This document shows, one piece after another, positions 11,122 to 23,307 of a stretch of 58,635 nt of DNA (position 1 is the first letter of the stretch; each line of letters starts with the position of its first letter). Below the pieces are notes generated by a model. It did no database searches, was not told the DNA's origin, and was given only the letters and a program-made list of their open reading frames with translations. The stretch is from [Clostridium] symbiosum. GTDB taxonomy: Bacteria; Bacillota; Clostridia; Lachnospirales; Lachnospiraceae. The stretch covers positions 1 to 58,635 of the forward strand of contig JAETSN010000022.1 of the NCBI GenBank assembly GCA_021769625.1. Direction: 5' to 3'. Made by a program: the position numbers and the translations under genes.

Positions 11122-11933
11122 TGTATCTATTTTTTACGGATTTAGACGGCACACTGCTCAATGACGAAAAACAGATCACGCCGAAAACGCTGAAAGCCAT
11201 AGACGCCTATATCTCGGCGGGCAATAAATTTATCATCACTTCCGGCAGGCCCTTCAACAATATCCGGGAGGTGGCAAAACGGACCGGACTTGACAAGTAT
11301 CAGGATCTTCTGCTGATCTGCTACAACGGCTCCGTGATCTATGACTGCGGACAGGAAAAATATCTTGCGGACCTGCGGCTCGACCCGAAGGATGCGCTGC
11401 ACATCATCGACACCGCGGAAGAAATGGGCATCCACTGTCAGACCTACTCCTCCACGAAGGCAGTCTGCAGGCATCATGACCCCGAATCGGATTACTACGC
11501 GCACCAGACACAGATAGAATTTGTCTACGCCGATGATATTCTGGCACATCTGGACGAAGCGCCCCACAAGGCGTTAGCCATCTCCCTGGATGACAGAACA
11601 AAGCTGGAGCAGTTGCAGGAAAAGCTCGCCCCCTGGATGGAGGGCAGGCTGACCACTGTCTTCTCCTGTGCGGAATATCTGGAGTTTGTGGACTGCCGCT
11701 CCGGCAAGGGGAACGCCGTGAAATTTGTCTGTGACCTGTACCATGTGCCGGTCTCGGACGCCTACGCCGCAGGGGACGCCAACAACGACTTCTCCATGCT
11801 GACTGCGGTTGGCAACAGCATCGCCATGATAAACGGCAGCGATGAAGTAAAAGCGGTATCTTCCATCATCACCAGGGAAGACAACAACCACGACGGGCTG
11901 GCGGAAATCCTGTTTCGTCTTGCTGAAAATTAG
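11121..11933 (+). CDS. HAD-superfamily Cof-type phosphatase
   Basis: 270 residues, normal for Cof/YbiV-type hydrolases. Motif I is FTDLDGTLL at the N-terminus, motif II is ITSGRP (about 40), the Lys of motif III is in SGKGNAV (about 195), and motif IV is AAGDANNDFSML. The large cap domain between motifs II and III indicates a sugar-phosphate or flavin-type small substrate. The start codon overlaps the ABC-F stop by one base, so translation is coupled. A strong terminator follows. Confidence 0.93.
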   Translation: MYLFFTDLDGTLLNDEKQITPKTLKAIDAYISAGNKFIITSGRPFNNIREVAKRTGLDKYQDLLLICYNGSVIYDCGQEKYLADLRLDPKDALHIIDTAEEMGIHCQTYSSTKAVCRHHDPESDYYAHQTQIEFVYADDILAHLDEAPHKALAISLDDRTKLEQLQEKLAPWMEGRLTTVFSCAEYLEFVDCRSGKGNAVKFVCDLYHVPVSDAYAAGDANNDFSMLTAVGNSIAMINGSDEVKAVSSIITREDNNHDGLAEILFRLAEN

Positions 11934-11940
11934 TATCTGT

Positions 11941-11988
11941 AAAGCCCGCACCGGCGCAGAATCTGCGCGGCAGTGCGGGCTTTGTTCT
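11941..11988 (+). terminator. Intrinsic terminator of ABC-F/HAD operon
   Basis: AAAGCCCGCAC (11941-11951) pairs with GTGCGGGCTTT (11973-11983), enclosing a smaller GCGCAGA/TCTGCGC hairpin, and is followed by TTTGTTCTT. Confidence 0.9.
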
Positions 11989-12056
11989 TATTGGATCCTA
12001 AATCCTATGCCCATATCCGAAAATCTATCTCTGCCTGTCAAACTCAGAATATACAC

Positions 12057-13157
12057 TTACTTTCTTAATTCTTCCGGTATATAATCTCCAAACTTGTCTG
12101 TCAATCCACTTCTACAAGAATACCCTCTGGTAAAAACTGAAAAATTATTTAAAAATTCAATAAAGTCAGTGTGGCTATCCTCTTTAGAAAGATATTCTTT
12201 CATAAGTTCATCCACGGTATACATCTGCCGTCCAAGTCCTTTATACAGCAATTCAAATACTACGTCACACTTATAATCATTTTTTTCTGTCGATAACTCC
12301 AGTACACCTATCGACTCAATCCCTTCTCCTTTTACCGCATGAGGTACACTCTCCTTAAAAAACATCTTAAATCCTTTCGGGGGAACTACCGATTCTTTCG
12401 CCAAACTGCTCCTCCCAACCTGATTCCTGAAATGGAAATTCCATCCACTGTTAAAATCCAATCCTCCATCCAAAGTATATTTAGAATTCTTTTCTATTTC
12501 CTGCGTATCAAAAGAAGATATTTCCCATTTTGCCGCCATATCTCCGGCTATTACCCTTATTTTTTCTCTCATCTCTTCGCATTTGTAATAATAATCGGCA
12601 TTATAATATGTCCAATCGTCCGACCACCCGCCATAAGAAGAATTGATGGTCTCTCCTTCACGATAATTGACATATTGTGCCGCCCTCATATTTTCTTTTG
12701 CAAATATATCATACATTTCACTTACGATCTGTTTGTTATCATCTTCAGTTTTTCCGGATGTCTGCCGCTGCTGTACCCTGTATAACCTCATGGAAGAACA
12801 GCATACTTCAAAATACTCTTTTAAATCCTCCTCGCTAATCTTTCCTTCATAAAACTCCCGCATTCGATTTGAAATATCTTTTTGCATATCCCACCCAAAA
12901 CGGTCGCCAAAAATACTCTTGGGCATCCCTTTTATAACGCTGTTATCTGAATAGCATCCATACATATTTTCTATCGCTTCTATGGTTTCTGTCGACCTTT
13001 CATAAGAATCCCTCGAGTGAGATTCACTGCCGGATTTATCCTGTGCCGGATTAATATACTCGTATGTAGTTTTTGCTTCATACATGATATTTCTGCATTG
13101 TATATTTTCAGCTACAGGTTGTTTCAAGTAGCCTATGTGCAGTGTACTGCCTGTCAT
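12057..13157 (-). CDS. Uncharacterised accessory protein of ECF module 1
   Basis: 366 residues, not recognised as a known family. It is charged and rich in Tyr, Asp and Ser in the middle (a WSDDWTYYNADYYYK stretch near residue 185) with no signal peptide or membrane segment. I start it at 13157 (MTGSTLH), where GGAGGAGAGATAAT precedes the ATG; the longer frame has no ribosome site and begins inside a hairpin. It is the third gene after the module-1 target promoter, in the place where module 2 carries the 16334-17008 gene. That position suggests a parallel role, but I see no clear sequence similarity between the two. Confidence 0.6.
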   Translation of the reverse strand: MTGSTLHIGYLKQPVAENIQCRNIMYEAKTTYEYINPAQDKSGSESHSRDSYERSTETIEAIENMYGCYSDNSVIKGMPKSIFGDRFGWDMQKDISNRMREFYEGKISEEDLKEYFEVCCSSMRLYRVQQRQTSGKTEDDNKQIVSEMYDIFAKENMRAAQYVNYREGETINSSYGGWSDDWTYYNADYYYKCEEMREKIRVIAGDMAAKWEISSFDTQEIEKNSKYTLDGGLDFNSGWNFHFRNQVGRSSLAKESVVPPKGFKMFFKESVPHAVKGEGIESIGVLELSTEKNDYKCDVVFELLYKGLGRQMYTVDELMKEYLSKEDSHTDFIEFLNNFSVFTRGYSCRSGLTDKFGDYIPEELRK

Positions 13158-13185
13158 ATTATCTCTCCTCCATTGTCTCTTGCAT

Positions 13186-13235
13186 AAAAAGCGGCAAAAT
13201 CCCCGTCTCTTCCTTCCGTGGAAATTTCGCCGCCA
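13186..13235 (-). terminator. Hairpin with T run, repeated in module 2
   Basis: On the minus strand GGCGGCGAAATTTCC pairs with GGGGATTTTGCCGC and is followed by TTTTTATG. An almost identical hairpin lies at 16223-16270. Here it sits between the lipoprotein gene and the 12057-13157 gene, so it may act as a partial terminator or attenuator. In module 2 it sits at the end of the operon. Confidence 0.7.
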
Positions 13236-13390
13236 TCCTTGCTGAATCATAGTCATAAAATAGATTATATTTTTAATATCGACACTCTATGGTCATTTCT
13301 TAATCTTTAGCCTCAATATAATTCTTATATTTCATAAGCGAGTAAACCTCTATTCGATTTGAGGCTTTTCATCCTTCTCTTACTCATTTT

Positions 13391-13975
13391 TTATTCCGAT
13401 AGTATCTTTAAATCTTTTAACATTTGATCTGTATCACTGCAATTCATTATGTAAAAATAATAAGTCCCGGCTTCCCCGATCTCTATTGACTGCACCTCTT
13501 TCGTTTCCGTTATCTCCACCTCCGAGATAATATTTCCATTCAATACCACACCCCCGCGAAGATGCAGCTCTGCACCATCGGAAACAGACTGCAGGGAAAA
13601 ACTTACGGTGCTCCCTTCCTCCAATTCCCATCCTTCCGTGTTCTCGTGCATAAATACCTCCACCGTCCGCCCATACAGCGCGATCTGGGATAGTTCCACC
13701 ATTTCCCCACTCTTAATATAGGGACAGTCGAACAGTGTTTCTATCGCATATTCCTCTTTCAACTTATCGATGCTTTCCTTATTTAACGCCATGCTTCTGA
13801 ATTCCTCCACAGCAGGCTTCTCAGGAATCGTATCAGCCGTGATGATCCTGTTTTCATCCGTCTGTGATTCCGCAATTTCAGGCGTATTCGGGACTTCATT
13901 CTTCCTTCCGCATGCGCTTGATAAACATAATATAACACAAATAGCTGCAAATATTTTTCTCTGATTACGTTCCAT
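13391..13975 (-). CDS. Lipoprotein of unknown function (ECF module 1)
   Basis: 194 residues. A basic N-terminus (MERNQRK) and hydrophobic core lead to a lipobox LSSAC at about residue 22, so it should be lipid-anchored outside the membrane. The mature part is acidic. Its C-terminal half looks beta-rich (alternating hydrophobics, EVEITETKEVQSIEIGEAGTY), a texture like pre-peptidase C-terminal or other galactose-binding-like domains; this is only an impression. It follows the small membrane protein gene at 14061 in the same direction and probably shares its ECF-type promoter. Confidence 0.7.
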   Translation of the reverse strand: MERNQRKIFAAICVILCLSSACGRKNEVPNTPEIAESQTDENRIITADTIPEKPAVEEFRSMALNKESIDKLKEEYAIETLFDCPYIKSGEMVELSQIALYGRTVEVFMHENTEGWELEEGSTVSFSLQSVSDGAELHLRGGVVLNGNIISEVEITETKEVQSIEIGEAGTYYFYIMNCSDTDQMLKDLKILSE

Positions 13976-14060
13976 TGAATACCTCTCCTGTCAAAATGAT
14001 CGTATAGAATGAATTATTCCATACTCCGGGCGATGCTCCTCTTCATACTGTGTCATAGTA

Positions 14061-14270
14061 TCAATCCGGCGAGTTTAGGAAATATTCATGATCTACCGTA
14101 TCCCCATGTTCCTCATCTTCCTCAAAAATATATTTTTCATCCGGAGCATCAGCATTTTTTGAAACGTTTTTGATCACAAAGAAACCTGCTGTCATAAATA
14201 GTATTACCACAATAACTAATGACAAAATTACTTTACGCTTTATTTTTACTCCTTTTTTCATGCTTTCCAT
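14061..14270 (-). CDS. Small membrane-anchored protein, MESMKK type
   Basis: 69 residues. A basic start (MESMKKGVKIKRK) is followed by one transmembrane segment (residues 14-34) and a short acidic tail with many Asp and Glu residues. The gene start and leader are almost identical to those of the secreted protein at 17162-17572: the same ribosome site region, the same MESMKK start, and the same ECF-type promoter upstream. The exported portions differ completely. It is the first gene of the module-1 target operon. Function unknown. Confidence 0.65.
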   Translation of the reverse strand: MESMKKGVKIKRKVILSLVIVVILFMTAGFFVIKNVSKNADAPDEKYIFEEDEEHGDTVDHEYFLNSPD

Positions 14271-14286
14271 TCTTCTCTCACCACCT

Positions 14287-14333
14287 CCCCTACCAATAAA
14301 ACAATCAAACCGGCTAAAACCTTACAGGATTTT
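14287..14333 (-). promoter_or_regulatory. ECF-type promoter, module 1 target operon
   Basis: On the minus strand CTGTAAGGTTTT, then 13 bases, then GTTTTATTGGTAGGGG. The same two blocks at exactly the same spacing occur at four other places in this island (14881-14927, 17589-17636, 19052-19100, 21812-21861). The -10-like half deviates most in this copy. Confidence 0.75.
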
Positions 14334-14341
14334 CCAAAAAA

Positions 14342-14556
14342 TTATTTTTTTACTTTTATACCATCCTTTATTTTGAATAGATCTTCCTCACTTACCTCCG
14401 CATACATTGAAAACATAATATTTTCTTTTGAAACCCAGAGCATCGAATAGCTTCCATCTTCAAATACTTCATGCTGTAAAGCTCCGCCTCAAACATCAGC
14501 CTGACAATCCTCTCTATCCTCTGCTCTTTTTGATCTTTCGCCATGCTATATTTCAT
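14342..14556 (-). pseudogene. DUF4367 anti-sigma gene with internal deletion (module 1)
   Basis: The first 28 codons match the module-2 anti-sigma protein (MKYSM-KDQKEQ-IER and on to FEAELYSMK). The frame then jumps to the last 37 codons in another frame (FEDGSYSMLW to FKIKDGIKVKK) and hits a stop. About 475 bases are missing compared with module 2, including the membrane segment and most of the DUF4367 domain. The start codon still overlaps the sigma stop as ATGA. Confidence 0.85.
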
Positions 14557-14870
14557 CGCATCCCCTCTTCATCCAGCGCCTCCCCCAGCTTCTCCTTCAC
14601 CCTGTGCAGCCTGACCTGCGCCGCATTCTGTGATATGCCGAGGATTTTTGCCGCTTCTTTTACCGAAAATCCATAGTAATACCGCAGTACCAGAATATCA
14701 TGGTACGCGGCAGGCAGTTCCCTCAAAAGCCGGCGGATCAGTTCAGCCTCCTCCTTCTGACCCAGAATGCCTTGGGCAACGCAGTACATGTTCCCCCTGT
14801 TCCTTCCGTAGATCTCAATAAAATTTTTCTTTTGTTCCTCAGTCTCCAGAAGAGATAAATAAAAAAGCAT
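14553..14870 (-). pseudogene. ECF sigma factor with in-frame 81-residue deletion (module 1)
   Basis: 105 residues, starting at MLFYLSLLETEEQ, against 186 in module 2. The first 43 residues and the last 62 are nearly identical to module 2. The part between is gone: the rest of region 2, which binds core polymerase and the -10 element, and the linker. The junction falls in a GCCTCCTCCTTCT sequence that occurs twice, exactly 243 bases apart, in the module-2 gene, so recombination between short direct repeats explains it. Region 4 (residues 50-100, helix-turn-helix with SVKEAAKILGISQNAAQVRLHR) is intact. It cannot act as a normal sigma factor but could still bind -35 DNA or an anti-sigma factor. 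Confidence 0.85.
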
Positions 14871-14880
14871 GCTTTTTTCC

Positions 14881-14927
14881 CCTCTACTTATTAAACAAAT
14901 AAACACATCAAAACATTACAGGTTTTT
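14881..14927 (-). promoter_or_regulatory. ECF-type promoter of module 1 sigma gene
   Basis: On the minus strand CTGTAATGTTTT, 13 bases, then GTTTAATAAGTAGAGG, just before the sigma start. It belongs to the five-member motif set described at 14287. Confidence 0.8.
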
Positions 14928-14946
14928 CAAAATTTTTTTGCCTAAT

Positions 14947-15057
14947 ACTAACTAACGGCCACACGCTGCGCGAGTGCCCTTATGCTAACCAACGGTCACA
15001 CGCTGCGCGAGTGCCCTTATGCTAACCAACGGTCACACGCTGCGCGAGTGCCCTTAT
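14947..15057. repeat. Three tandem 37-bp direct repeats
   Basis: Units start at 14947, 14984 and 15021. The last two are identical and the first differs at three positions. Each contains CACACGCTGCGCGAGTG. They sit between the Rpn terminator and the module-1 sigma promoter, and the other two modules lack them. Confidence 0.9.
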
Positions 15058-15063
15058 GCTAAC

Positions 15064-15100
15064 AAAAAGACCGGAAATCCGTTTTTGGATTCCCAGTCTT
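15064..15100 (-). terminator. Terminator of module 1 rpn gene
   Basis: On the minus strand AAGACTGGGAATCC pairs with GGATTTCCGGTCTT and is followed by TTTGTTA. Near-identical hairpins lie before module 2 (19112-19148) and module 3 (21874-21914). Confidence 0.85.
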
Positions 15101-15109
15101 ACCATTCAC

Positions 15110-15970
15110 CTAAATTCCAAACTGCTTTCTTACCATTTCCACTTCTTTCAGTGTACAGCCTATGGATTCCGCTATCGCCTTATCATCTGTCTCTCCATCC
15201 TGTACCTTTTTGAAAATAAGAGCCGCATGTTTTATACCTTTCTCCACCCCAATCTCTTCTCCATTTTCTAAAAGTACCTGGTCATAAACTTCCTGATCAA
15301 ACTCATAGACACTCATCTCTACAATCTCCTCCTTATTTTTCTTAAAAAAATCCGTAAGGATATTCTCCGAAATACACTCATTCACCGCCTGATGCACCGC
15401 TTCTTCCAATTTCACCCCGGCGTCTCTCTTATCCCTGACTTTTCCCACAAAAGCCATATATCCTTGCAGGCTTTCACATTTCGCCAACAGTTCCCCGTTA
15501 CAGCCCGGATTGATATTAATTGTAGTAACGATCAGCTCAAGTTCCGGTTCTTTTTCCTCTCCGGAAAATAGATCCGAAAGCCTGCAAGCCGCCCTCTCCG
15601 GCTGCTCTGCAGTTCCATTATAGAACACCACAAACCTCGGTGCCGGAATCGTCACATTCGTTGTCCGGTGCAGTCTGCCGGGCGGCGTTATCTTTTTCAG
15701 TTCTTCTGTCACATAATACAAATTCCTGAGCGGCATGTTCGGATTGACGTTTGCCTGCTGCTCGTACAAATTTAATGTGGAATCTATCACAAACGCCGCG
15801 TCATTCCGCATCTTCATGCAGATTGCCTCCTCCAAAGTGACTACCTCCAGCTCATCCTCCTTCTCATAGTTTGTCCCGTTCATCGCATTGTACAGGGAAA
15901 GCAGGTTTTTCTTATCCCGGTACAAAAGGCAGAACACGTTGTCCTTATGGTTTCTTGCTGCATTTTACAT
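15110..15970 (-). pseudogene. Rpn-family PD-(D/E)XK nuclease gene, nonsense at codon 2
   Basis: The reading frame encodes a Rpn/transposase-like nuclease: LLSLYNAMNGTNY, a middle with MRNDAAFVID and LNLYEQQANVNPNMPLR, then FVVFYNG, and a C-terminal helix-turn-helix-like DDKAIAESIGCTLKEVEMVRK. AAAGGAG stands at normal distance before an ATG at 15968-15970, but the next codon (15965-15967) is TAA. With AAA instead of TAA the protein would read MKNAARNHKDNVFCLL, which fits the family. A GTG eleven codons further in might rescue a shortened product. Rpn proteins are DNA nucleases linked to recombination and phage defence. A terminator follows the stop. Confidence 0.75.
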
Positions 15971-16222
15971 AACAGTTTCTCCTTTCCGCAGGAGAAAGCA
16001 TATGTCATCTTCTATTCTCCCGCTCTTCACTTGATTTGATTAAATGTGAATTAAAGCAGGATTTCAAAGATGCCTTCCGGCTCGATGTGGTCAAAAGATA
16101 ACCACTTGAATGAATTTAAAGAATATACTTATGAAAATATCTGCTTTTATCTGACTATAACATGGTATGCGGTTTCTTTCAAGACTAAATATCTAAAAGT
16201 CTTGGTTTATTTATTTTCAGAC
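15971..16222. other. Rpn upstream region, no gene
   Basis: No coding sequence was seen. The part around 16065-16170 is similar to 19400-19500 upstream of the second rpn copy (shared TGCCTTCCG, GTGGTCAAAAG-like and GACTATAACATG segments), so the rpn duplication included its upstream region. Confidence 0.5.
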
Positions 16223-16270
16223 AAAAGCGGCAAAATCCCCATCTCTTCCTTCCGTGGAAATTTCGCCGCT
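16223..16270 (-). terminator. Terminator of the module 2 target operon
   Basis: On the minus strand AGCGGCGAAATTTCC pairs with GGGGATTTTGCCGCT and is followed by TTTGTC. It is nearly the same hairpin as 13186-13235. Confidence 0.8.
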
Positions 16271-16333
16271 GTCCTTGCTTAATCATCGTTATAAAATATC
16301 ATATTCCTGCTCATTCATAAATCCATCTCTCAA

Positions 16334-17008
16334 TCAGGATTCCAGGCTCTCCAAAAAGGTCCAAGCCAAATCATCGTGCAGGATATACTCTGACATCTTC
16401 TTTATATGGTCCGAGAAAAAATTCAGCAATTTATTTCCCCACAGGACAAGTTCCATCATCTTGATATCCCTACTGTCTTTGAATACATCCACGGTAAACC
16501 TTTCCGCTTTCGTCCAGTCCATCCTTCTGTTCGCAAACTGATCCCAGCTTGGCGGCTCTTCATTTAGTTCTCCTGTATAACCATTATATTTTGCCAACGC
16601 ACAGGACAGGCTTAATGTATGATAAGAACCAAGCGAATCGCCTGTGCCCTGTCCCATTTCATCCGCATAACTGCACAGTGCAAACATTTCCATTTCTGTC
16701 GCATTTCGGGGATCTATCTTGCTGATATCAATATTATATACTTCCCTTTTCCCTCCTACGCCTGATATGATCTGGATAATCGGGTTATCGGGTGTAGAGC
16801 TTTCCGGAAGCATGGCGATCAGCCCATAACCCATTCCTCCTTCACCCGCAACCACTGCTAGATTTAAATGCTTTCCTTTTTCTTCCTTTTCAGCCTTTGT
16901 CACGGCGTTGCCAAAACTTTTATCCTCGCCCTGTGACCCCGGAACTTTTTTGTTCATAGGGGTTTTTTGGTAATCGTATCTGCCATACGGCGTACTTGTC
17001 ACCTGCAT
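16334..17008 (-). CDS. Uncharacterised protein of ECF module 2
   Basis: 224 residues from the ATG at 17008. AGGAGG lies 11 bases upstream and the start overlaps the previous stop codon (TAATG). Features seen are a glycine-rich stretch (VVAGEGGMGYG), then KIDPRNATEMEMFALCSYADEMGQG, a pattern I associate with uncharacterised Lachnospiraceae proteins of the DUF6033 sort (low certainty). There is no signal peptide of its own. The same frame is open upstream as far as an A7 run. A one-base slip there would join it to the signal peptide encoded at 17008-17139, giving a secreted protein. It is the last gene of the module-2 target operon. Confidence 0.6.
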   Translation of the reverse strand: MQVTSTPYGRYDYQKTPMNKKVPGSQGEDKSFGNAVTKAEKEEKGKHLNLAVVAGEGGMGYGLIAMLPESSTPDNPIIQIISGVGGKREVYNIDISKIDPRNATEMEMFALCSYADEMGQGTGDSLGSYHTLSLSCALAKYNGYTGELNEEPPSWDQFANRRMDWTKAERFTVDVFKDSRDIKMMELVLWGNKLLNFFSDHIKKMSEYILHDDLAWTFLESLES

Positions 17009-17139
17009 TACATCAAATACCTCCTGATATATAAAATTTTTTTCCTGTCCGCTGCCATTGCATTGATACTGGCACCGCAGCACATAACCACAGCTAAAGC
17101 CAACACCAGTATCTTTTTTAAACCTTTCATTTTCTTCAT
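17008..17139 (-). CDS. Short signal-peptide gene coupled to the next gene
   Basis: 43 residues: MKKMKGLKKI, a hydrophobic core (LVLALAVVMCCGASI) and a signal peptidase site after NAMA. The remainder (ADRKKILYIRRYLM) is short and basic. AAAGGAG precedes the ATG. The stop overlaps the next ATG as TAATG. Two readings are possible. It may be a real small exported basic peptide, or it may be the first part of a longer secreted protein whose frame is split at a seven-A run (17037-17043). A -1 slip there leads exactly into the downstream frame. Confidence 0.55.
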   Translation of the reverse strand: MKKMKGLKKILVLALAVVMCCGASINAMAADRKKILYIRRYLM

Positions 17140-17161
17140 CTCAATTTCTCCTTTGCAATTT

Positions 17162-17572
17162 TCACTTTGAATCCGAAGCGCTCACATACTCCCCGCGCCC
17201 GTTCGCATCATACACATAGCCGCTGAATGACAAAGTAAACTTATGTCCTGCCGTTACTGTGGAACTCTTTGTCTCAGAACAATTCGCTCCATTGACGGAT
17301 ATAGCCCATACGCCAACATTGGTTCCCGTCGTATTATCGACAAGTTTCAGTGTTCCGGTTATTTTGGATGTACCTGATTTTCCCGTAACCGTCAATGAAG
17401 ATTTTGCCGTATTTCCGGAAATCTGTAAATTCGTTTTTACTGTATCCGCATTATCCCAGTATGGCTGAATTCCCGCCGCCTGTACCGACACTTTAGCGAT
17501 GCCAAAACACACAAAAAACGCCAGCAACAATATTGTGATGCTTCTCTTTATGCTCTTTTTCATGCTTTCCAT
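17162..17572 (-). CDS. Secreted protein, MESMKK type (ECF module 2)
   Basis: 136 residues. It has a signal peptide (MESMKKSIKRS, a hydrophobic core to about residue 27, SVQA cleavage site) and a mature part of about 105 residues. The mature part is rich in Thr, Ser, Gly and Asn with alternating beta-strand texture (KSSLTVTGKSGTSKITGTLKLVD), suggesting a small extracellular beta-sandwich. GGAGGTG lies 9 bases before the ATG. The gene starts just after an ECF-type promoter, shares its leader with the 14061-14270 gene, and is followed at 22 bases by the signal-peptide gene. Function unknown; likely a direct target of the adjacent sigma factor. Confidence 0.75.
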   Translation of the reverse strand: MESMKKSIKRSITILLLAFFVCFGIAKVSVQAAGIQPYWDNADTVKTNLQISGNTAKSSLTVTGKSGTSKITGTLKLVDNTTGTNVGVWAISVNGANCSETKSSTVTAGHKFTLSFSGYVYDANGRGEYVSASDSK

Positions 17573-17588
17573 TCTTCTCTCACCTCCT

Positions 17589-17636
17589 CCCTCTACTTAT
17601 AAAACAATCAAACCGGCTAAAACCTTACAGGATTTT
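17589..17636 (-). promoter_or_regulatory. ECF-type promoter, module 2 target operon
   Basis: On the minus strand CTGTAAGGTTTT, 13 bases, then GTTTTATAAGTAGAGG. The region is almost identical to 14287-14333 but with a better -10-like block. Confidence 0.8.
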
Positions 17637-17644
17637 CCAAAAAA

Positions 17645-18337
17645 TTATTTTTTTACTTTTATTCCGTCCTTTATTTTAAATATCTCCTCCTCAGTAACAT
17701 CCGCAGTCAAAGAAAATGTAAGTCCTTCTTTTGACCTCCACAGCATCGAATGGCCCCCATCTTCAAATTTGACCAGAAGCACCTCATTTCCTTCCTCATC
17801 CTGTATCACCGATATTTCACTGTGTTCATTGTCATACTGATGATTACCTCCGGACGGCGAATAATCAAAAAATATCACTTTTTCTTCATCTTCACATGAA
17901 AAATAGGAAAAACTTCCTCCAAATATTTCATCGCAATCCTCCATCTCCAACTCAAACCCCTCCGGCACATACGTAAGCTCATACATCGGCACAGGTCCCG
18001 TCCACTCCGCATCCGGCATATCCACTTCCAGATGTGTGCTGTGCCATTTCACCAGCACATCCCACGCCTTCGCGATATACTCCGGATTGGTCAGGCACAG
18101 AATGATAAACAGGATCGCCGCCGCGGACAGCACGTACCTCACCACAGTCCCGATCTGATACTTCCGCCTCTGCCAACCGATCAGCCGCTTCATCCTCCGC
18201 TCAAACCCCTCCGAAAATGCCACAGGTTCCCGCAGTTCTTCCATACATTTCATGCTGTAAAGCTCCGCCTCAAACATCAGCCGGACAAGCCTCTCTATCT
18301 TCTGCTCTTTTTGATCTTTCACCATGCTATATTTCAT
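17645..18337 (-). CDS. DUF4367-type membrane anti-sigma factor (module 2)
   Basis: 230 residues. The cytoplasmic N-terminal region (1-65) is helical and charged and would hold the sigma factor. One membrane segment spans about residues 66-84 (YVLSAAAILFIILCL). The outside domain (about 110-228) begins with the ELTYVPEGFELE motif typical of DUF4367 and ends with VTEEEIFKIKDGIKV. No zinc-binding HxxxCxxC motif is present, so it is not a ZAS-type anti-sigma factor. It should hold the 18482-19042 sigma factor until an envelope signal is sensed. Its ATG keeps the ancestral GAGGGGATGCG context. A 16-bp repeat array now separates it from the sigma stop. Confidence 0.8.
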   Translation of the reverse strand: MKYSMVKDQKEQKIERLVRLMFEAELYSMKCMEELREPVAFSEGFERRMKRLIGWQRRKYQIGTVVRYVLSAAAILFIILCLTNPEYIAKAWDVLVKWHSTHLEVDMPDAEWTGPVPMYELTYVPEGFELEMEDCDEIFGGSFSYFSCEDEEKVIFFDYSPSGGNHQYDNEHSEISVIQDEEGNEVLLVKFEDGGHSMLWRSKEGLTFSLTADVTEEEIFKIKDGIKVKK

Positions 18338-18499
18338 CGCATCCCCTCTTCAATTAATCCCTTCCCCGCCTGATCCTCTCTCCGCCCGATTTCCTCTCTC
18401 CGTCCGATTTCCTCTCTCCGCCTGATCTCCTCTTCACCTGATCTTCTCTCCATCTGATCCTCCCTCCACCCGATTCCCTCTTCACCTGATTCCCTCTTC
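18336..18499. repeat. Ten 16/18-bp tandem repeats at the sigma/anti-sigma junction
   Basis: Read on the minus strand, ten units of 16 bases (two of 18) run from the sigma gene end (GAAGAGGGAATCAGGT) to the anti-sigma start (GAAGAGGGGATGCGAT). The last unit equals the junction in module 1, where sigma stop and anti-sigma start overlap as ATGA. The array thus expanded from the tail of the sigma gene, changed its last residues and broke the overlap. Many units carry a GGAGAG-like sequence. Confidence 0.85.
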
Positions 18500-19042
18500 A
18501 TCCAACGCCTCCCTCAGCTTCTCTTTCGCCCTGTGCAGCCTGACCTGCGCCGCATTCTGCGATATGCCGAGGATTTTTGCCGCTTCTTTTACCGAAAGTC
18601 CATAGTAATACCGCAGTACCAGAATATCATGGTACGCGGCAGGCAGTTCCCTCAAAAGCCGGCGGATCAGTTCCGCCTCCTCCTTCTCCACCGCCATCTC
18701 CTCCGGGAAACGCACCTTCTCTGCATTTTCTTCCTGATACAGCGCCTCCATCGCGGCATCGCTAAACAGCAGGATCCTTTTTTGTCTATGCAGCAGGTTG
18801 ATCGCCGTATTTCGGGCAATCGTAATACACAGTCCGTCCATCTCCTTCTCAGACAGCCCTTCATAGCGCCGGAATTTATCCGCCAGTTTTGCAAACGCGT
18901 CATGCACCGCATTCTCAGCCTCCTCCTTCTGACCCAGAATGCCTTGGGCAACGCAGTACATGCTCCCCCTGTTTCTTCCGTAAATCTCTATAAAATTTTT
19001 CTTTTGTTCCTCAGTCTCCAGAAGAGATAAATAAAAAAGCAT
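18482..19042 (-). CDS. ECF-type RNA polymerase sigma factor (module 2, intact)
   Basis: 186 residues. Region 2 runs from about 10 to 80 (FIEIYGRNRGSMYCVAQGILG, AVHDAFAKLA, ITIARNTAINLLHR) and region 4 from about 125 to 180 (ELPAAYHDILVLRYYYGLSVKEAAKILGIS is the helix-turn-helix core). There is no region 3, as expected for group IV sigma factors. GGGG precedes the ATG by 10 bases. An ECF-type promoter with the island motif lies directly upstream, so it is probably self-activating. The anti-sigma gene follows after a repeat array. Confidence 0.9.
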   Translation of the reverse strand: MLFYLSLLETEEQKKNFIEIYGRNRGSMYCVAQGILGQKEEAENAVHDAFAKLADKFRRYEGLSEKEMDGLCITIARNTAINLLHRQKRILLFSDAAMEALYQEENAEKVRFPEEMAVEKEEAELIRRLLRELPAAYHDILVLRYYYGLSVKEAAKILGISQNAAQVRLHRAKEKLREALDEEGIR

Positions 19043-19051
19043 GCTCTTTTT

Positions 19052-19100
19052 CCCCTCTACTTATTAAACAAATAAACACGCCAAAACCTTACAGGTTTTT
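19052..19100 (-). promoter_or_regulatory. ECF-type promoter of module 2 sigma gene
   Basis: On the minus strand CTGTAAGGTTTT, 13 bases, then GTTTAATAAGTAGAGG. It belongs to the five-member motif set. Confidence 0.8.
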
Positions 19101-19111
19101 TAAAATTTAAC

Positions 19112-19148
19112 AAAAAGACCGGAAACCCGTTTTTGGATTCCCAGTCTT
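19112..19148 (-). terminator. Terminator of module 2 rpn remnant
   Basis: AAGACTGGGAATCC pairs with GGGTTTCCGGTCTT, followed by TTTGTTA on the minus strand. Same hairpin as 15064-15100. Confidence 0.85.
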
Positions 19149-19157
19149 ACCCTTTAC

Positions 19158-19406
19158 CTAAATTCCAAACTGTTTTCTTACCATTTCCACTTCTTTCAGT
19201 GTACAGCCTATGGATTCCGCTATCGCTTTATTATCTGTCTCTCCGGCATGTATTTTTTTATAAATACGCCCTCCAAGTTCTATTCCGATAGCCACTCCAT
19301 CTTCCCGCAGTGTCTGGTCATAAACTTCCTGATCAAATTCATAGCTGCCCATTTCTACAATCTCCTCCCTGTTTTCCTTAAAAAAATCCGTAAGAACATT
19401 CTCCAT
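19158..19406 (-). pseudogene. Rpn-family nuclease, C-terminal remnant (module 2)
   Basis: The encoded segment (MENVLTDFFKENREEIVEM to EMVRKQFGI) matches the last third of the 15110 gene, including the identical final helix-turn-helix-like segment. The nuclease domain is missing. The sequence upstream (to about 19500) resembles the rpn upstream region at 16065-16170, so an internal deletion removed the front of the gene. The reading frame is open from 19436 but without a good ribosome site. Confidence 0.8.
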
Positions 19407-19531
19407 GCCTTCCGTCCTGATGTAGTCAAAAGTCAATCGTTTATATAAATTTAATAAATATATTTATTAAAATATATACTTCTCTATGACTATAACATGA
19501 AATCCAGTCCCGTTCAAGCATATGTTTCCAT

Positions 19532-21265
19532 TTAATCCCCCCCTATCTCCTCCCCCGTCACCGCATCGAAAGTCCTCTGTACCGGATACCCGTCCTCAGC
19601 CTGTTCTCCGGTGCAGATCCATACCGGCGCCACAGTGCATGCTCCGTCTTCCTCCCCGATCGTCAGAGCGCAAAGCCTTATTTCTTTTATGATAACTTTT
19701 CCCCCATCTTCCCCGTCCTGATAATTTTCCGAAATCTTTCCGACCAGTTCCTGAAAGGGAAGCAATACTTCGAACTCCTCTGTCGTCTCGAAATCCAGTA
19801 TATCGGTCACGGTCAGGCTTACCAGTCCGTCCTTTCGATAAATTCCTGTGACCGGCGCTCTGCTTTCGTCCGCCACATAGAGCGGACCGATCTCGGCTGT
19901 CCAGACCGGCAGCCCCTGACATACCTGCCATATTCGGAAAGCATAGGCTTCCTGCTCTTTCCCCCACTCGGTCCTGAAATCGACATCGCCTTCCTCAAAC
20001 CCCCATTCATAGACTCTACGGGATTCCTCGCACAGAGTGGGGGCATCCAGCGCATACGCCTGACAGGTAAACTCTCCCGGAAAAAATCCTATCCCCTCCA
20101 AAGTCTCCTGCACCTTCCGTTTCGTCTCATCTCTTGTCATAAAGTCAAGTTCCTCCGTCAGGGAATAACTTCCCGCATTATACATTGTCGTATTCCCGAC
20201 GGTATCACAGAACCCGTAAAAATAACGATCCGCTTCCGCATTGACACTGTAGGACACCTGCGCCGGGTACAGACAGAGACTGCATCCGTCCTCCGACTGA
20301 TACGCATATCCCTCCTTCTCAGCGCCGCTCCTGTCAGGCATCTCATAGGTTATTCTGTCTTCTATCTCTTTCTCCCCGAAAAACATCTCGAAAGCGGCAT
20401 CTTCATCATACGCCTGATACTGCCCTCTCGTTTTATAAAAGATCCCGTTCCGAAAAGAATCGCTGACGACCACCTCCGCATCAAAAGACAGATTATCACT
20501 CACTTCCTCCCGGTAGGAGGACGGCGCCTCCCACTCTGCCTTCTCTTTTTCCCTGATCCCGTCTTTGACCTGAAACAACTCCTCCTCCGTACTGTCAGTC
20601 CCGAGCAGCAGGAAGGTCAGTTTATCTTTTTCCGAATACCACAGCAGGCTGATGTGCCCGTCCTCCTCTTTCACGCAGAACACCTCGTTCCCCTCTTTAT
20701 CTTTTCCCCGTGATGCCGCCTCACCGTTCTGAAAATATGAATGTGCATTCGAAGATCCGTACACAAGGGATATACTCTGCTGTGTCATGGCATCGCCTTC
20801 CAAAATGTATTTAAAACAGTGGATCACGCCCTCCGTCCCGTCATACTCATTAAACATCGCCTCAAACCCCTCCGGAAGATAGGTCAGTTCATACTCCGGC
20901 ACAGCGTTCTCCTTCTCCTCCTCCGGCATATGCACATGCAGTTCCGTGTGCTTTGGATACCGGTACCATTTCACAAGCGCCTCCCAGGCCCTAACCACCC
21001 TGCCGGGATCGGTCAGGCACAAAATGACCAGAAAAACCGCTGCCGCCGACAGGATATACAAGGCTGCCTTTTTGATCTGATACCCCCGCCGCTGCCTGCC
21101 GATCAGGCGCTCCATCCTCCTGTGAAACATCTCCGAAAATTCCGCGGGCTCCCGCAGTGTTTCATCCTGTTCCATACTCTGCAATTCCGCCTCGGACATC
21201 CATCTGACCAGTTCCCTTATCTCTTCTTCATCCCGCATTTCCGACATGTTGTATCCCATTTTCAT
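19532..21265 (-). CDS. Large DUF4367-type anti-sigma factor (module 3)
   Basis: 577 residues. Residues 1-260 match the module-2 anti-sigma factor in layout: a charged cytoplasmic helix region, one membrane segment at about 68-87 (ALYILSAAAVFLVILCL), then ELTYLPEGFEAMF and a DUF4367 domain ending TEEELFQVKDGIREK. Residues 260-577 form an extra extracellular part that module 2 lacks. It has repeated aromatic and acidic segments and resembles the two-domain YycH/YycI-like or PepSY-like proteins only in general texture, so I cannot name it. The start overlaps the sigma gene by 38 bases. AAAGGTGCTTT precedes the first ATG. Confidence 0.8.
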   Translation of the reverse strand: MKMGYNMSEMRDEEEIRELVRWMSEAELQSMEQDETLREPAEFSEMFHRRMERLIGRQRRGYQIKKAALYILSAAAVFLVILCLTDPGRVVRAWEALVKWYRYPKHTELHVHMPEEEKENAVPEYELTYLPEGFEAMFNEYDGTEGVIHCFKYILEGDAMTQQSISLVYGSSNAHSYFQNGEAASRGKDKEGNEVFCVKEEDGHISLLWYSEKDKLTFLLLGTDSTEEELFQVKDGIREKEKAEWEAPSSYREEVSDNLSFDAEVVVSDSFRNGIFYKTRGQYQAYDEDAAFEMFFGEKEIEDRITYEMPDRSGAEKEGYAYQSEDGCSLCLYPAQVSYSVNAEADRYFYGFCDTVGNTTMYNAGSYSLTEELDFMTRDETKRKVQETLEGIGFFPGEFTCQAYALDAPTLCEESRRVYEWGFEEGDVDFRTEWGKEQEAYAFRIWQVCQGLPVWTAEIGPLYVADESRAPVTGIYRKDGLVSLTVTDILDFETTEEFEVLLPFQELVGKISENYQDGEDGGKVIIKEIRLCALTIGEEDGACTVAPVWICTGEQAEDGYPVQRTFDAVTGEEIGGD

Positions 21266-21803
21266 AAAGCACCTTTCTCAGCCTTTCCTTTGCCCTGTAT
21301 AATCTCGTTTCCGCTGTTTTTTTCGATATGCCGAGGATCTGTGCGATCTCTTTTACGGAGAGATCACAAAAATACCGCAAAACCAGAATATCGTGATATA
21401 TCCCGGAAAGTTCTTTTAACAGCAGCCGGATCAGCTCCGCCTGCTCTTTTTCCATCGCCATCTCCTCCGGAATACTGATGTTCCCGGCGCTTTCCCGGCT
21501 TTGCCTTTCCATATCCTCCGGCTCCAGCAGGATCTCCCTTTTCCGCTTCTCCAAAAGATCCGCCACCGTATTTTTGACGATCGTGATGCACAGGGCATCC
21601 ATCTCCCTCTCAGAGAGCCTCTCATACCGCCCGAAATGATCCGCCAGCTTCATAAATGCATCATGCACCGCATTCTCCGTCTCCTCCTTCTGCCCCAAAA
21701 AACGAAATGCAATGTGATACATCCTGTCCCTGTTCCGCTCATATATTTCCACAAACCTGTCCTTCTGTTCCTCTGTCTCCAGAAGAGATAAACCGTAAAG
21801 CAT
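21228..21803 (-). CDS. ECF-type RNA polymerase sigma factor (module 3)
   Basis: 191 residues, clearly paralogous to the module-2 factor (LSLLETEEQK, AVHDAF-KLAD, YHDILVLRY, SVKE-AQILGIS) but much diverged in the linker and region 4 tail. The C-terminal extension (QHVGNAG) runs into the anti-sigma gene, giving a 38-base overlap. The promoter upstream carries the island motif with more changes, so module 3 may recognise a slightly different sequence. Its anti-sigma partner is the large protein downstream. No MESMKK-type target operon follows it. Confidence 0.9.
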   Translation of the reverse strand: MLYGLSLLETEEQKDRFVEIYERNRDRMYHIAFRFLGQKEETENAVHDAFMKLADHFGRYERLSEREMDALCITIVKNTVADLLEKRKREILLEPEDMERQSRESAGNISIPEEMAMEKEQAELIRLLLKELSGIYHDILVLRYFCDLSVKEIAQILGISKKTAETRLYRAKERLRKVLYENGIQHVGNAG

Positions 21804-21811
21804 GCTTTTTT

Positions 21812-21861
21812 CCTCCTCTGCCTATAAAACGGATCACCGCCCAAAAACACTACAGGATTTT
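21812..21861 (-). promoter_or_regulatory. ECF-type promoter of module 3 sigma gene
   Basis: On the minus strand CTGTAGTGTTTT, 13 bases, then GTTTTATAGGCAGAGG. Same arrangement and spacing as the other four copies. Confidence 0.75.
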
Positions 21862-21873
21862 AAAAAATTTCCA

Positions 21874-21914
21874 AAAAACAAGACCGGAAACCTGTCACCC
21901 AGATTCTCAGTCTT
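21874..21914 (-). terminator. Rpn-type terminator without an rpn gene (module 3)
   Basis: AAGACTGAGAATC pairs with GGTTTCCGGTCTT followed by GTTTTTT on the minus strand. The rpn gene that precedes this hairpin in modules 1 and 2 is absent, so the hairpin marks the old module boundary. Confidence 0.75.
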
Positions 21915-21961
21915 ATCCCTGGCCTTTTCCTCAAAAGCCATAATATACTGCAGAAAAATTC

Positions 21962-21990
21962 TTGAATCTTATCCCTCCATATGTTATAGT
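21962..21990 (+). promoter_or_regulatory. Promoter of type I antitoxin RNA (copy 2)
   Basis: TTGAAT (21962-21967), a 17-base spacer and TATAGT (21985-21990), matching copy 1 at 177-205. Confidence 0.8.
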
Positions 21991-21996
21991 AAAAAA

Positions 21997-22096
21997 GGGA
22001 AAGCCAGAGAAGCGGCCTACCCCCTAAACAACAAAGCTAAAACCTCAATACGAGGTATGCCGTCACTATCGGAAGTAGTGGCGGCTATTTCTTTCC
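21997..22096 (+). ncRNA. Type I antitoxin RNA (copy 2)
   Basis: An RNA of about 100 bases is inferred from the promoter above and a terminator hairpin (GCCGTCACTA 22059-22068 with TAGTGGCGGC 22076-22085, then a T-rich run). It converges on the toxin gene and overlaps its stop codon and 3' region. Its 5' block (GGGAAAGCCAGAGAAGCGGC) is nearly the same as the 5' block of the toxin mRNA, so the locus ends form an imperfect inverted repeat. A minus-strand hairpin at 22039-22055 (CCTC, 5-base loop, GAGG, TTTT) probably ends the toxin mRNA, leaving roughly 50-60 bases of antisense overlap. Confidence 0.75.
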
Positions 22097-22183
22097 CCTG
22101 AAGATCTGATAGATCAAACCCACAAGGGCGACAATGAATATTCCAATCTGAATCAAGTCAGAATATGTAACATACATTGGCAT
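22085..22183 (-). CDS. Holin-like type I toxin, 32 residues
   Basis: The minus strand encodes MPMYVTYSDLIQIGIF followed by IVALVGLIYQIFRGKK: one membrane helix of about 20 residues and a basic tail, the classic form of small toxins annotated as putative holin-like. AGGAGGGCG lies right before the ATG, a very strong ribosome site. Two CCCTCC sequences in the leader (22202-22222) can pair with its GGAGGG and hide it. An antisense RNA gene converges from the other side. Overproduction would be expected to depolarise the membrane (family knowledge). A truncated copy lies at 293-346. Confidence 0.85.
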   Translation of the reverse strand: MPMYVTYSDLIQIGIFIVALVGLIYQIFRGKK

Positions 22184-22267
22184 CGCCCTCCTTTCTTTCG
22201 TCTGGAGGGTAGCCCCTCCGAGATGGAGGGTAAGCCGCCTTTGGCTCTCTGGTTTTCCCATACCGGG

Positions 22268-22297
22268 ATTATAGCATATCCATCACCCCGCACACAA
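22268..22297 (-). promoter_or_regulatory. Promoter of type I toxin mRNA
   Basis: TTGTGT (22292-22297), an 18-base spacer and TATAAT (22268-22273) with TGC just before it (extended -10). The mRNA would start near 22260 with GGGAAAACCAGAGAGCC, giving a leader of about 75 bases. Confidence 0.75.
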
Positions 22298-22329
22298 TAT
22301 CTTTTTTCGACACCAGTTTATCGGACATA

Positions 22330-23307
22330 TTAAAGATAAACAATAGCCGTCAGCACCAACAAAAGCCCCATCAGGATGCTGATGATCCCCGATGCCATGT
22401 TAAAGCTTCTTTTATTGCAGTAATACTGGTTCTGCGCAGGCGGCACCGCCGCATAGGGCACCTGCATAGCGTCCAGCATCGCCAAAAAGTCCGCCGCCCG
22501 CTTGCTCATATACTCGTGCAGCCCGAAGCTGACGGTCTGGGCGAACCAGTGCTTCGCCACCTGCAGGTTGTTCATATTGTATTCCAGCCTGCCCATATAA
22601 TAACAGTATCTGACAAACTCATAGCGGCTTCCGAGACGCCCAGCCGCGTACAGGTTCATCATATCCGCCTTGATCCTGTCATTTTTGCCCGCAAACATCA
22701 TATCCCGGAAGTTCAGTTCCTGCAAAAGCGCGATCGCCTGCGCCTGGATCTTCCGTTTTACCTGGGGATTGTGGATCCAGTTGTTGCGGAAAGCGTCCAT
22801 ACACACATGGAAATTCTGCGTATCCTCCAGTTCCCCGTAAAAACGGCACCAGAAATAATCGTACATCATCCTCGTTCTGTTATTGCAGAGCTCGTACTGC
22901 GGCTTCATCTCCATCAGGTTCTGGTAAGCCGCGTCAAAGTCCCCCATCAGCAGATAGGCGTCGGTGCGGTTGATGCGCTGGCTGCGCCGCATGCCCGGAA
23001 ACTGAAATTTTTCCAGATATTTCACGCATTCCAGATAAGCGTCAAAGTCACACTCCTCGGTCGCTATCAGCTGCAGGTTGTAATTGCGCATCATGACCAT
23101 CATAAAATACACATAAAGCAACCAGAACAACAGCAGCATGATCCCCAAAGGATTATAGTAGGGCGTATAGGCCCTCTGATATGTACGATGCAGAAAACTC
23201 CCGCCGGATACCACAAACACCACTGCCACAGGCCAGATGAGCGTCATCAGCACATGAAGCACCTTGACCCGCCTGACATTTTTTTTCACCATATTTGTTC
23301 TTGTCAT
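22330..23307 (-). CDS. Membrane protein with TPR-like helical domain
   Basis: 325 residues. Two membrane helices (about 16-36 and 54-73) are followed by a large helical cytoplasmic domain (80-290). Its pattern of paired helices (DAYLLMGDFDAAYQNLMEM, YCYYMGRLEYNMNNLQVAKHWF) looks like tetratricopeptide repeats. A third membrane helix ends the protein (303-323). I do not recognise a named family. It is the last gene of the pheA-DUF815-ppx-ppk operon, 19 bases after the small acidic protein gene, so it is probably co-expressed with polyphosphate enzymes. No function is claimed. Confidence 0.7.
   Translation of the reverse strand: MTRTNMVKKNVRRVKVLHVLMTLIWPVAVVFVVSGGSFLHRTYQRAYTPYYNPLGIMLLLFWLLYVYFMMVMMRNYNLQLIATEECDFDAYLECVKYLEKFQFPGMRRSQRINRTDAYLLMGDFDAAYQNLMEMKPQYELCNNRTRMMYDYFWCRFYGELEDTQNFHVCMDAFRNNWIHNPQVKRKIQAQAIALLQELNFRDMMFAGKNDRIKADMMNLYAAGRLGSRYEFVRYCYYMGRLEYNMNNLQVAKHWFAQTVSFGLHEYMSKRAADFLAMLDAMQVPYAAVPPAQNQYYCNKRSFNMASGIISILMGLLLVLTAIVYL

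What the first reader, a model, noticed from the sequence alone, without database searches (positions are those of the whole stretch)
12057..21861. Triplicated ECF sigma/anti-sigma island with its own promoter code and exported targets
Three paralogous minus-strand modules each show an Rpn-type terminator, a promoter, a sigma gene and a DUF4367 anti-sigma gene. Modules 1 and 2 also carry a target operon starting with a MESMKK-type exported protein. Module 2 is intact, module 1 is eroded, and module 3 is diverged with a much larger anti-sigma ectodomain. The repeated layout suggests a membrane-signalling system that expands by segmental duplication and drives small secreted or membrane proteins of unknown function.
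Basis: partly seen in the sequence, partly recalled or inferred. Interest (0 to 1): 0.8.

Follow-up and report, generated by a model that had tools for sequence, protein, structure and literature searches.

The report
Sigma switch with exported protein cargo
A bacterium related to gut Lachnospiraceae carries three copies, one older and two recent, of a membrane-controlled gene switch that probably turns on small exported proteins beside it, and the same pairing of switch and exported protein recurs in many Clostridia.

Summary
The three minus-strand modules are real. Modules 2 and 3 encode an ECF sigma factor and a DUF4367 anti-sigma factor; module 1 is a decayed copy. "Triplication" needs correcting. 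Module 3 is a diverged paralogue whose large "ectodomain" is a gene fusion: its outer part is a separate lipoprotein gene in a congener. Modules 1 and 2 are a recent duplication of one operon (sigma, anti-sigma, t1-t5) that decayed in complementary ways. The "MESMKK" genes share only a leader; module 1's gene is t3, not t1.

The promoter claim largely held: five near-perfect sites in the 4.08-Mb genome, all here, and the t1 promoter is kept in the four congeners where I saw t1.

The main new result is linkage. t1 is an exported beta-sandwich without a family name in the libraries searched. A DUF4367-type anti-sigma gene lies within 1.5 kb of 28 of 30 t1 loci in the family and 20 of 30 examined across the class. 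A low-confidence model of the anti-sigma ectodomain best matches the C-terminal domain of RseB/MucB. Cargo elsewhere includes RHS-repeat giants and papain-like peptidases. I read this as a dedicated ECF switch for exported cargo. Signal and cargo function are unknown; nothing was tested by experiment.

The parts
21823..21856 (-). module 3 sigma promoter, CCTGTA-N2-GTTTT-N13-GTTTNATA, 0 mismatches
21228..21803 (-). module 3 ECF sigma factor (191 aa; 63% to module 2)
19532..21265 (-). module 3 anti-sigma (N-terminal part, TM 67-85, DUF4367) fused to a lipoprotein-type domain that is a separate gene in L036
19115..19148 (-). terminator-like hairpin upstream of module 2
19062..19095 (-). module 2 sigma promoter, 0 mismatches
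18482..19042 (-). module 2 ECF sigma factor (186 aa), intact
17645..18337 (-). module 2 anti-sigma: cytoplasmic part, TM 64-82, conserved IAKAWDVLVKW juxtamembrane stretch, DUF4367 domain 118-225
   Evidence: the anti-sigma role is inferred from position and layout
17598..17631 (-). module 2 target promoter, 0 mismatches; kept upstream of t1 in four congeners
17162..17572 (-). t1: exported 136-aa protein, signal peptide plus seven-strand beta-sandwich
17008..17139 (-). short ORF with a signal-peptide-like leader at the t2 position; only the first codons align to t2
15067..15100 (-). terminator-like hairpin upstream of module 1
14889..14922 (-). module 1 sigma promoter, 0 mismatches
14553..14870 (-). 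module 1 sigma remnant: 105-aa open frame; module-2 codons 39-119 (most of sigma2) missing in frame, sigma4 kept
14392..14556 (-). module 1 anti-sigma fragment, no TM or DUF4367
14295..14328 (-). module 1 target promoter, 1 mismatch
14061..14270 (-). t3: 69-aa single-TM protein, t1 leader codons joined to the congeners' t3 gene
13391..13975 (-). t5: 194-aa lipoprotein (lipobox-like LSSAC, by eye), dN/dS 0.19 against L023
12057..13157 (-). t6: 366-aa protein beyond a repeated inverted-repeat-like element (by eye; not listed by the terminator scan); conserved at the same place in L023; membership of the operon uncertain

Best explanation
This is a dedicated ECF sigma / anti-sigma switch whose regulon is mainly its own locus. 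The sigma drives its own operon and a second promoter of the same kind in front of a run of exported genes led by t1. The anti-sigma holds the sigma at the membrane and reads the outside through its DUF4367 domain; when the anti-sigma is removed the sigma is released and the cargo is made. Inferred steps: DUF4367 acts like the C-terminal domain of RseB/MucB, but in cis, shielding a signal-peptidase-like site just outside the membrane, and a ligand opens it for proteolysis. In this genome the switch exists as a diverged paralogue (module 3, with a lipoprotein domain fused onto the anti-sigma) and a newer operon that duplicated and decayed in complementary ways. The one intact newer pair (module 2) therefore probably serves two half-operons, t1 in module 2 and t3/t5 in module 1. 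Shown by sequence: architecture, promoter sites, duplication, fusion, linkage. Inferred: that the partner is an anti-sigma, regulation, proteolysis, cargo function.
Against: No expression or binding data. L035 has no recognisable promoter before its sigma, and L036's has 4 mismatches by my count and is not among G403's hits at 3 or fewer. Off-locus sites: two at 2 mismatches in G400 and two in G403, and two loose-pattern sites in G399 and G400. Two of the three sigma-less genomes are only 85-86% complete. Upstream regions in other genera, read by eye, show no obvious shared motif. Reciprocal linkage is looser: 14 of 26 DUF4367 anti-sigma loci have t1 within 1.5 kb. Eight of 30 examined class loci have t1 with no sigma pair even in a wider look (three on short or cut contigs). 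The ectodomain model is weak: mean pLDDT 59.4, the other four models 43-45, blocks over the domain 53-84. Foldseek puts PsbP chains first (E 0.004-0.02) and RseB fifth (E 0.069). No MucB_RseB_C sequence match in this genome.
Confidence: 0.65

Rival explanations
1. t1 is not output but part of sensing: a secreted ligand or co-receptor that binds the DUF4367 domain and sets or resets the switch, the variable downstream genes being the real output.
For: t1 recurs while the genes after it vary; its beta-sandwich is of a kind used for protein contacts; in module 3 an exported-type domain is fused to the anti-sigma itself, which hints that cargo-type proteins touch the anti-sigma.
Against: t1 has its own sigma-type promoter in the genus; 12 of 26 DUF4367 anti-sigma loci have no t1 within 1.5 kb; some t1 genes stand alone.
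Confidence: 0.3
2. The switch is an arm of inter-bacterial competition: it controls exported effectors, with t1 as an accessory such as a surface scaffold or immunity-like protein.
For: Giant RHS-repeat proteins follow t1 in G526 and G594 (RHS_repeat) and a similar giant, not scanned, in G634; Amidase_6 in 4, Peptidase_C39_2 in 2 and Peptidase_C70 in 2 of 54 downstream proteins scanned.
Against: None was seen in the window or the genus loci; most downstream proteins match no family; no enrichment was tested; RHS proteins may have other roles.
Confidence: 0.25
3. The island is mostly decay: a duplicated locus being lost, with module 1 and module 3 non-functional and only sigma/anti-sigma/t1 of module 2 active.
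For: Module 1 lacks most of sigma2 and most of the anti-sigma; t2 and most of t4 are missing from the window. Three of nine genomes of the genus show no sigma.
Against: t5 in module 1 keeps dN/dS 0.19; the module-1 sigma frame shows 8 silent to 4 replacement changes on its own branch, though a recent deletion would explain that too; both module-1 promoters are kept.
Confidence: 0.25
4. The repeated layout is an assembly artefact of a draft genome.
For: The contig is from a 145-contig draft and the copies are 95-96% alike over four pieces.
Against: The copies differ by distinct deletions and about 5% of bases, and the same chromosomal slot (ppk-like side, HAD/ABC-F-like side; gene names recalled) holds such modules in L033, L035 and L036.
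Confidence: 0.05

Closest known systems
sigma-V / RsiV and sigma-P / RsiP of Firmicutes (PMC4183432 abstract and outline; PMC6066255 passages; RsiP only in the listing)
   Same: ECF sigma with a single-pass anti-sigma; a signal-peptidase-like [AV]xA site with an amphipathic-looking stretch straight after the TM segment (IAKAWDVLVKW in 5 of 7 genus proteins, near variants in 2).
   Different: Ectodomain is DUF4367; no RsiV-type domain (DUF4179 named in PMC6066255; DUF3298 recalled) was matched by Pfam. Cargo is exported proteins without family names, not lysozyme-resistance genes (recalled).
sigma-E / RseA / RseB and AlgU / MucA / MucB (PMC7400510 passages)
   Same: The DUF4367 model best matches the RseB/MucB C-terminal domain, the part that binds the anti-sigma outside the membrane.
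   Different: Here the domain is part of the anti-sigma itself; no lipid-sensing N-terminal domain was seen; no sequence match to MucB_RseB_C in this genome.
sigma-I / RsgI paralogues of cellulolytic clostridia (PMC6056542 passages)
   Same: Several paralogous sigma/anti-sigma pairs in one genome, with stringent promoters and exported cargo.
   Different: Those have a sigma-I-C domain and, as recalled, carbohydrate-reading anti-sigmas; here ECF with DUF4367, and the paralogues share one promoter core.
Pfam PF14285 DUF4367
   Same: All 11 aligned anti-sigma proteins match it at E up to 10, best 1.2e-12; L036's scores just under the cut-off (21.6 against 22.1).
   Different: The Pfam entry carries no function; no paper in the searched library holds the term in its text.

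Membership tests
ECF sigma factors | Sigma2 and sigma4 regions only, about 170-200 aa | tested here: met
   Modules 2 and 3: Sigma70_r2 and r4_2, TIGR02937 above cut-off, 186 and 191 aa. Module 1 remnant lacks most of sigma2.
ECF sigma factors | Adjacent membrane anti-sigma gene | tested here: met
   Gene directly downstream with one TM and an outer domain; a sigma within 1.5 kb of 24 of 26 DUF4367 loci. Binding not tested.
ECF sigma factors | Autoregulated promoter | tested here: inconclusive
   Same motif before sigma and target genes, but not seen before the sigma in L035 and poor in L036; activity not testable.
DUF4367 anti-sigma proteins | PF14285 above its cut-off | tested here: met
   Modules 2 and 3; the module 1 fragment was not scanned and lacks that stretch.
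RsiV-type anti-sigmas | RsiV-type outer domain | tested here: not met
   Pfam at E up to 10 gave DUF4367 only for module 2; no RsiV-type domain in the family tally of the 11 proteins.
RsiV-type anti-sigmas | Signal-peptidase site just outside the TM | tested here: inconclusive
   [AVILSTG]xA near the TM end in 32 of 33 rows against 46 of 125 control windows, but rows are redundant and the control is not matched for composition.
RseB/MucB C-terminal domain | Fold of the domain | tested here: inconclusive
RseB/MucB C-terminal domain | Sequence match to PF17188 | tested here: not met
   No match at E up to 10 in this genome; the E. coli control was found.
sigma-I / RsgI | RsgI N-terminal domain or carbohydrate-binding sensor domain | tested here: not met
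   No such family among the Pfam hits of the anti-sigmas.
Rpn nucleases / putative transposases | Match to an Rpn or PDDEXK model | tested here: not met
   Window copy 15110-15937 none in Pfam or NCBIfam; copies in L024 and L035 none in Pfam, L024 none in NCBIfam. The label is recalled by analogy.

The most novel reading that the evidence does not exclude
A Clostridia-wide, so far unnamed signalling triad: ECF sigma, an anti-sigma that carries an RseB/MucB-like shield in cis over a signal-peptidase-type site, and a dedicated exported beta-sandwich protein (t1) that is the switch's usual product or its ligand, with interchangeable exported cargo behind it. In this genome the triad has been rewired by a fusion (cargo domain joined to the anti-sigma) and by a kept sigma4-only protein that could compete for -35 elements or for the anti-sigma.
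Probability: 0.25. Interest if true: 0.75.

Novelty: new variant of a known kind. Interest (0 to 1): 0.57.

Why it matters
ECF switches are a main way in which bacteria sense their surroundings, and many in gut Clostridia have, as far as I know, no known signal or output. Here is one with a short, fixed promoter found almost only at its own locus, and one exported product that recurs in many Clostridia. That gives a testable handle (t1) on a little-studied signalling family. If the RseB-like reading of DUF4367 is right, it would link Gram-positive anti-sigma factors to the sigma-E stress pathway of Gram-negatives. The split operon and the anti-sigma fusion show such a switch being rewired in nature.

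Tried and rejected
Rpn as a functional part: the Rpn-like genes and remnants lie beside the modules, but no family model matched and relatives carry the modules with or without them; treated as neighbours.

Wider regulon: a 3-mismatch scan gave near-noise sites (nine against five in the reversed control; 6 to 15 sites in each of nine genomes, sigma or not).

Naming t1-t6 by family: no curated match (in A8 no family matched more than 1 of 30 members); t1 not found by sequence in the PDB. Fold matches of t1 (transglutaminase barrels, RsgI4 sensor, RbmA) are ordinary for an Ig-like sandwich and were not used to assign function.

Sigma tree: module 3 against L036 is unresolved, so their kinship rests on gene content and the fused domain.

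RNA families: none at E 0.1 in 11500-23000. Literature: DUF4367 0 papers; ECF with Lachnospiraceae and anti-sigma 0; ECF with polymorphic toxin 7 listed, none on this by title; gut/ECF/secreted proteins 0; RsgI sensor-structure search 0. These bound only that open-access library.

Rows dropped: two weak t1 hits (G037, G272:C1) before the second profile; of 60 downstream proteins found 54 were scanned, leaving out two of L082 and one each of L101, L119, L120, L125. The module 3 dN/dS row was in the wrong frame and is not used. The Fisher line is mislabelled; only counts are used. The binomial 0.0036 assumes a neutral replacement share of 0.74.

On checking, odds were lowered (best 0.70 to 0.65, novel case 0.30 to 0.25) because the ectodomain model is weaker than first written.
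Full report
WHAT IS THERE. The window is contig 125 of a 4.08-Mb, 145-contig draft genome. Three near relatives of its sigma lie in named records, two titled Lachnospiraceae bacterium and one uncultured bacterium. On the minus strand between 21.9 and 12.0 kb lie three sigma modules. Module 3 has sigma 21228-21803 and a 577-aa partner; module 2 has sigma 18482-19042, anti-sigma 17645-18337 and t1 17162-17572; module 1 has a 105-aa sigma remnant, an anti-sigma fragment, t3, t5 and t6. Sigma2, sigma4 and the ECF superfamily model are matched by modules 2 and 3, and DUF4367 by both partners. Each partner has one predicted TM segment. That the partner is an anti-sigma is inferred from this layout.

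HOW IT AROSE. Of nine genomes of the genus (own included), six have this sigma at E 1e-12 or better; the other five have one copy each, 62-91% identical. In four of those five (G400, G402, G399, G397) the order is sigma, anti-sigma, t1, then further exported genes where the contig goes on; in G403 it is sigma, anti-sigma, lipoprotein. G402, G397 and G403 have it in the window's chromosomal slot; G400 has it elsewhere. Window 19251-17111 aligns to the G400 operon start (88%) and window 14024-12010 to its far end (85%). So modules 2 and 1 are two partial copies of one operon: t1 is left in one, t3 and t5 in the other, and t2 and most of t4 are missing. Modules 1 and 2 are 95-96% alike over four pieces and 86% over a fifth, closer than either is to G400, so the duplication is recent. 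Module 1's sigma lost module-2 codons 39-119 in frame. Its first target gene is the t1 leader joined to t3. Module 3's outer domain aligns at 66% over 355 aa to the G403 lipoprotein, and the DNA shows about 0.26 kb missing at the joint: a gene fusion. The sigma tree does not resolve module 3's nearest kin. A second genus, G056, has two tandem sigma/anti-sigma pairs before t1.

THE PROMOTER. CCTGTA-N2-GTTTT-N13-GTTTNATA occurs four times without and once with one mismatch in the whole genome, all at this locus; none has two. Nine more have three, against five sites in all for the reversed pattern. Composition alone predicts 0.007 sites at one mismatch and 2.8 at three. In the other genomes, G400 has both its sigma and t1 sites at one mismatch; off-locus sites at two mismatches occur twice each in G400 and G403. 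A looser, variable-spacer pattern gave 11 sites in the nine genomes: 9 at the sigma locus, 2 elsewhere (G399, G400), none in the three genomes without the sigma and none in G403, which has it; the reversed control gave 3. The t1 promoter is kept in the four congeners where I saw t1, three of them with a spacer one base shorter. Against this, L035 shows no such promoter before its sigma and L036 one with 4 mismatches by my count, and in other genera I saw no shared motif by eye. A T-tract near -35 fits ECF promoters as mentioned in PMC6056542 (passages).

THE LINKAGE. The sigma itself at E 1e-30 is rare: 4 of 397 family genomes, own included. A t1 profile of five sequences found 8 of 397 family genomes at E 1e-3. 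Of nine places outside the window, seven (six genomes) sit beside a sigma/anti-sigma pair and two weak ones do not and look false; these two were left out of the next profile. A 12-sequence profile found 30 places in 26 of 397 genomes at E 1e-5: 28 of 30 have a DUF4367-type anti-sigma, found with my own profile, within 1.5 kb, and 20 of the 22 places new to that round. A 30-sequence profile found 59 places in 47 of 371 class genomes. Thirty loci were handed out and examined: 20 have the anti-sigma, 19 the sigma too; two of the thirty were already known (own, G108). Of the 12 loci unlinked at 1.5 kb, a wider look linked four more within about 5 kb, one by anti-sigma alone, leaving eight class loci unlinked, three of them on short or cut contigs. 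Forty-five of the 48 linked t1 genes lie on the anti-sigma's strand, downstream. Controls: 0 of 13 unrelated loci; among 13 other ECF loci of this genome t1 in 0 and a weak anti-sigma hit in 1 or 2. In the reverse direction the link is looser: 26 DUF4367 places in 18 of 200 genomes, sigma beside 24, t1 beside 14; the rest include lipoproteins, other exported proteins and tandem anti-sigmas. The searches score only the best candidates per genome, so genome counts are lower bounds.

WHAT THE PARTS ARE. t1 is modelled with confidence (block pLDDT 94-98 over residues 41-136) as a seven-strand sandwich behind a signal peptide; its PDB matches are the common Ig/FnIII kind. No Pfam or NCBIfam family matched more than 1 of 30 t1 relatives. 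Behind t1 elsewhere come RHS-repeat giants, and, among 54 downstream proteins scanned, Amidase_6 in 4, Peptidase_C39_2 in 2 and Peptidase_C70 in 2. Sigma, anti-sigma, t1 and t5 evolve under purifying selection against L023 (dN/dS 0.12-0.19).

VERDICT. The wider linkage of ECF sigma, DUF4367 and an exported beta-sandwich family without a name is the part a specialist would want to follow.

Noticed in passing
22085-22177 (-): 30-aa ORF matching Hol_Tox (putative holin-like toxin, E 1.1e-5, above cut-off), with an 11-pair hairpin on the other strand at 22059-22085: a possible type I toxin-antitoxin pair next to module 3.
   Followed up: partly
14941-15063: 37-bp tandem repeat, 3.3 copies, 95% matches, between the module 1 terminator and its promoter.
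   Followed up: no
18341-18497: 16-bp degenerate tandem repeat filling the gap between module 2 sigma and anti-sigma; in L024, L025 and L035 the two genes overlap instead.
   Followed up: no
13214-13262 and 16250-16298: Inverted-repeat-like element (by eye), 90% alike in two places, with further copies in L032 and L035; the terminator scan did not list it.
   Followed up: partly
15110-15937, 19158-19436: Copies and remnants of one Rpn-like gene (no family match) around the modules here and in several congeners, suggesting repeat-driven rearrangement of the slot.
   Followed up: partly
L128 1886-7318, L129 1910-7204, L136 552-6068: Giant exported proteins (1765-1839 aa) behind anti-sigma and t1 in other Clostridia; RHS_repeat confirmed for L128 and L136, L129 not scanned.
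   Followed up: partly
L134 6111-9390: G056: two tandem sigma/anti-sigma pairs followed by one t1, a duplication in another genus.
   Followed up: yes
L066 887-1947: G299: t1 itself is duplicated in tandem behind one anti-sigma.
   Followed up: no
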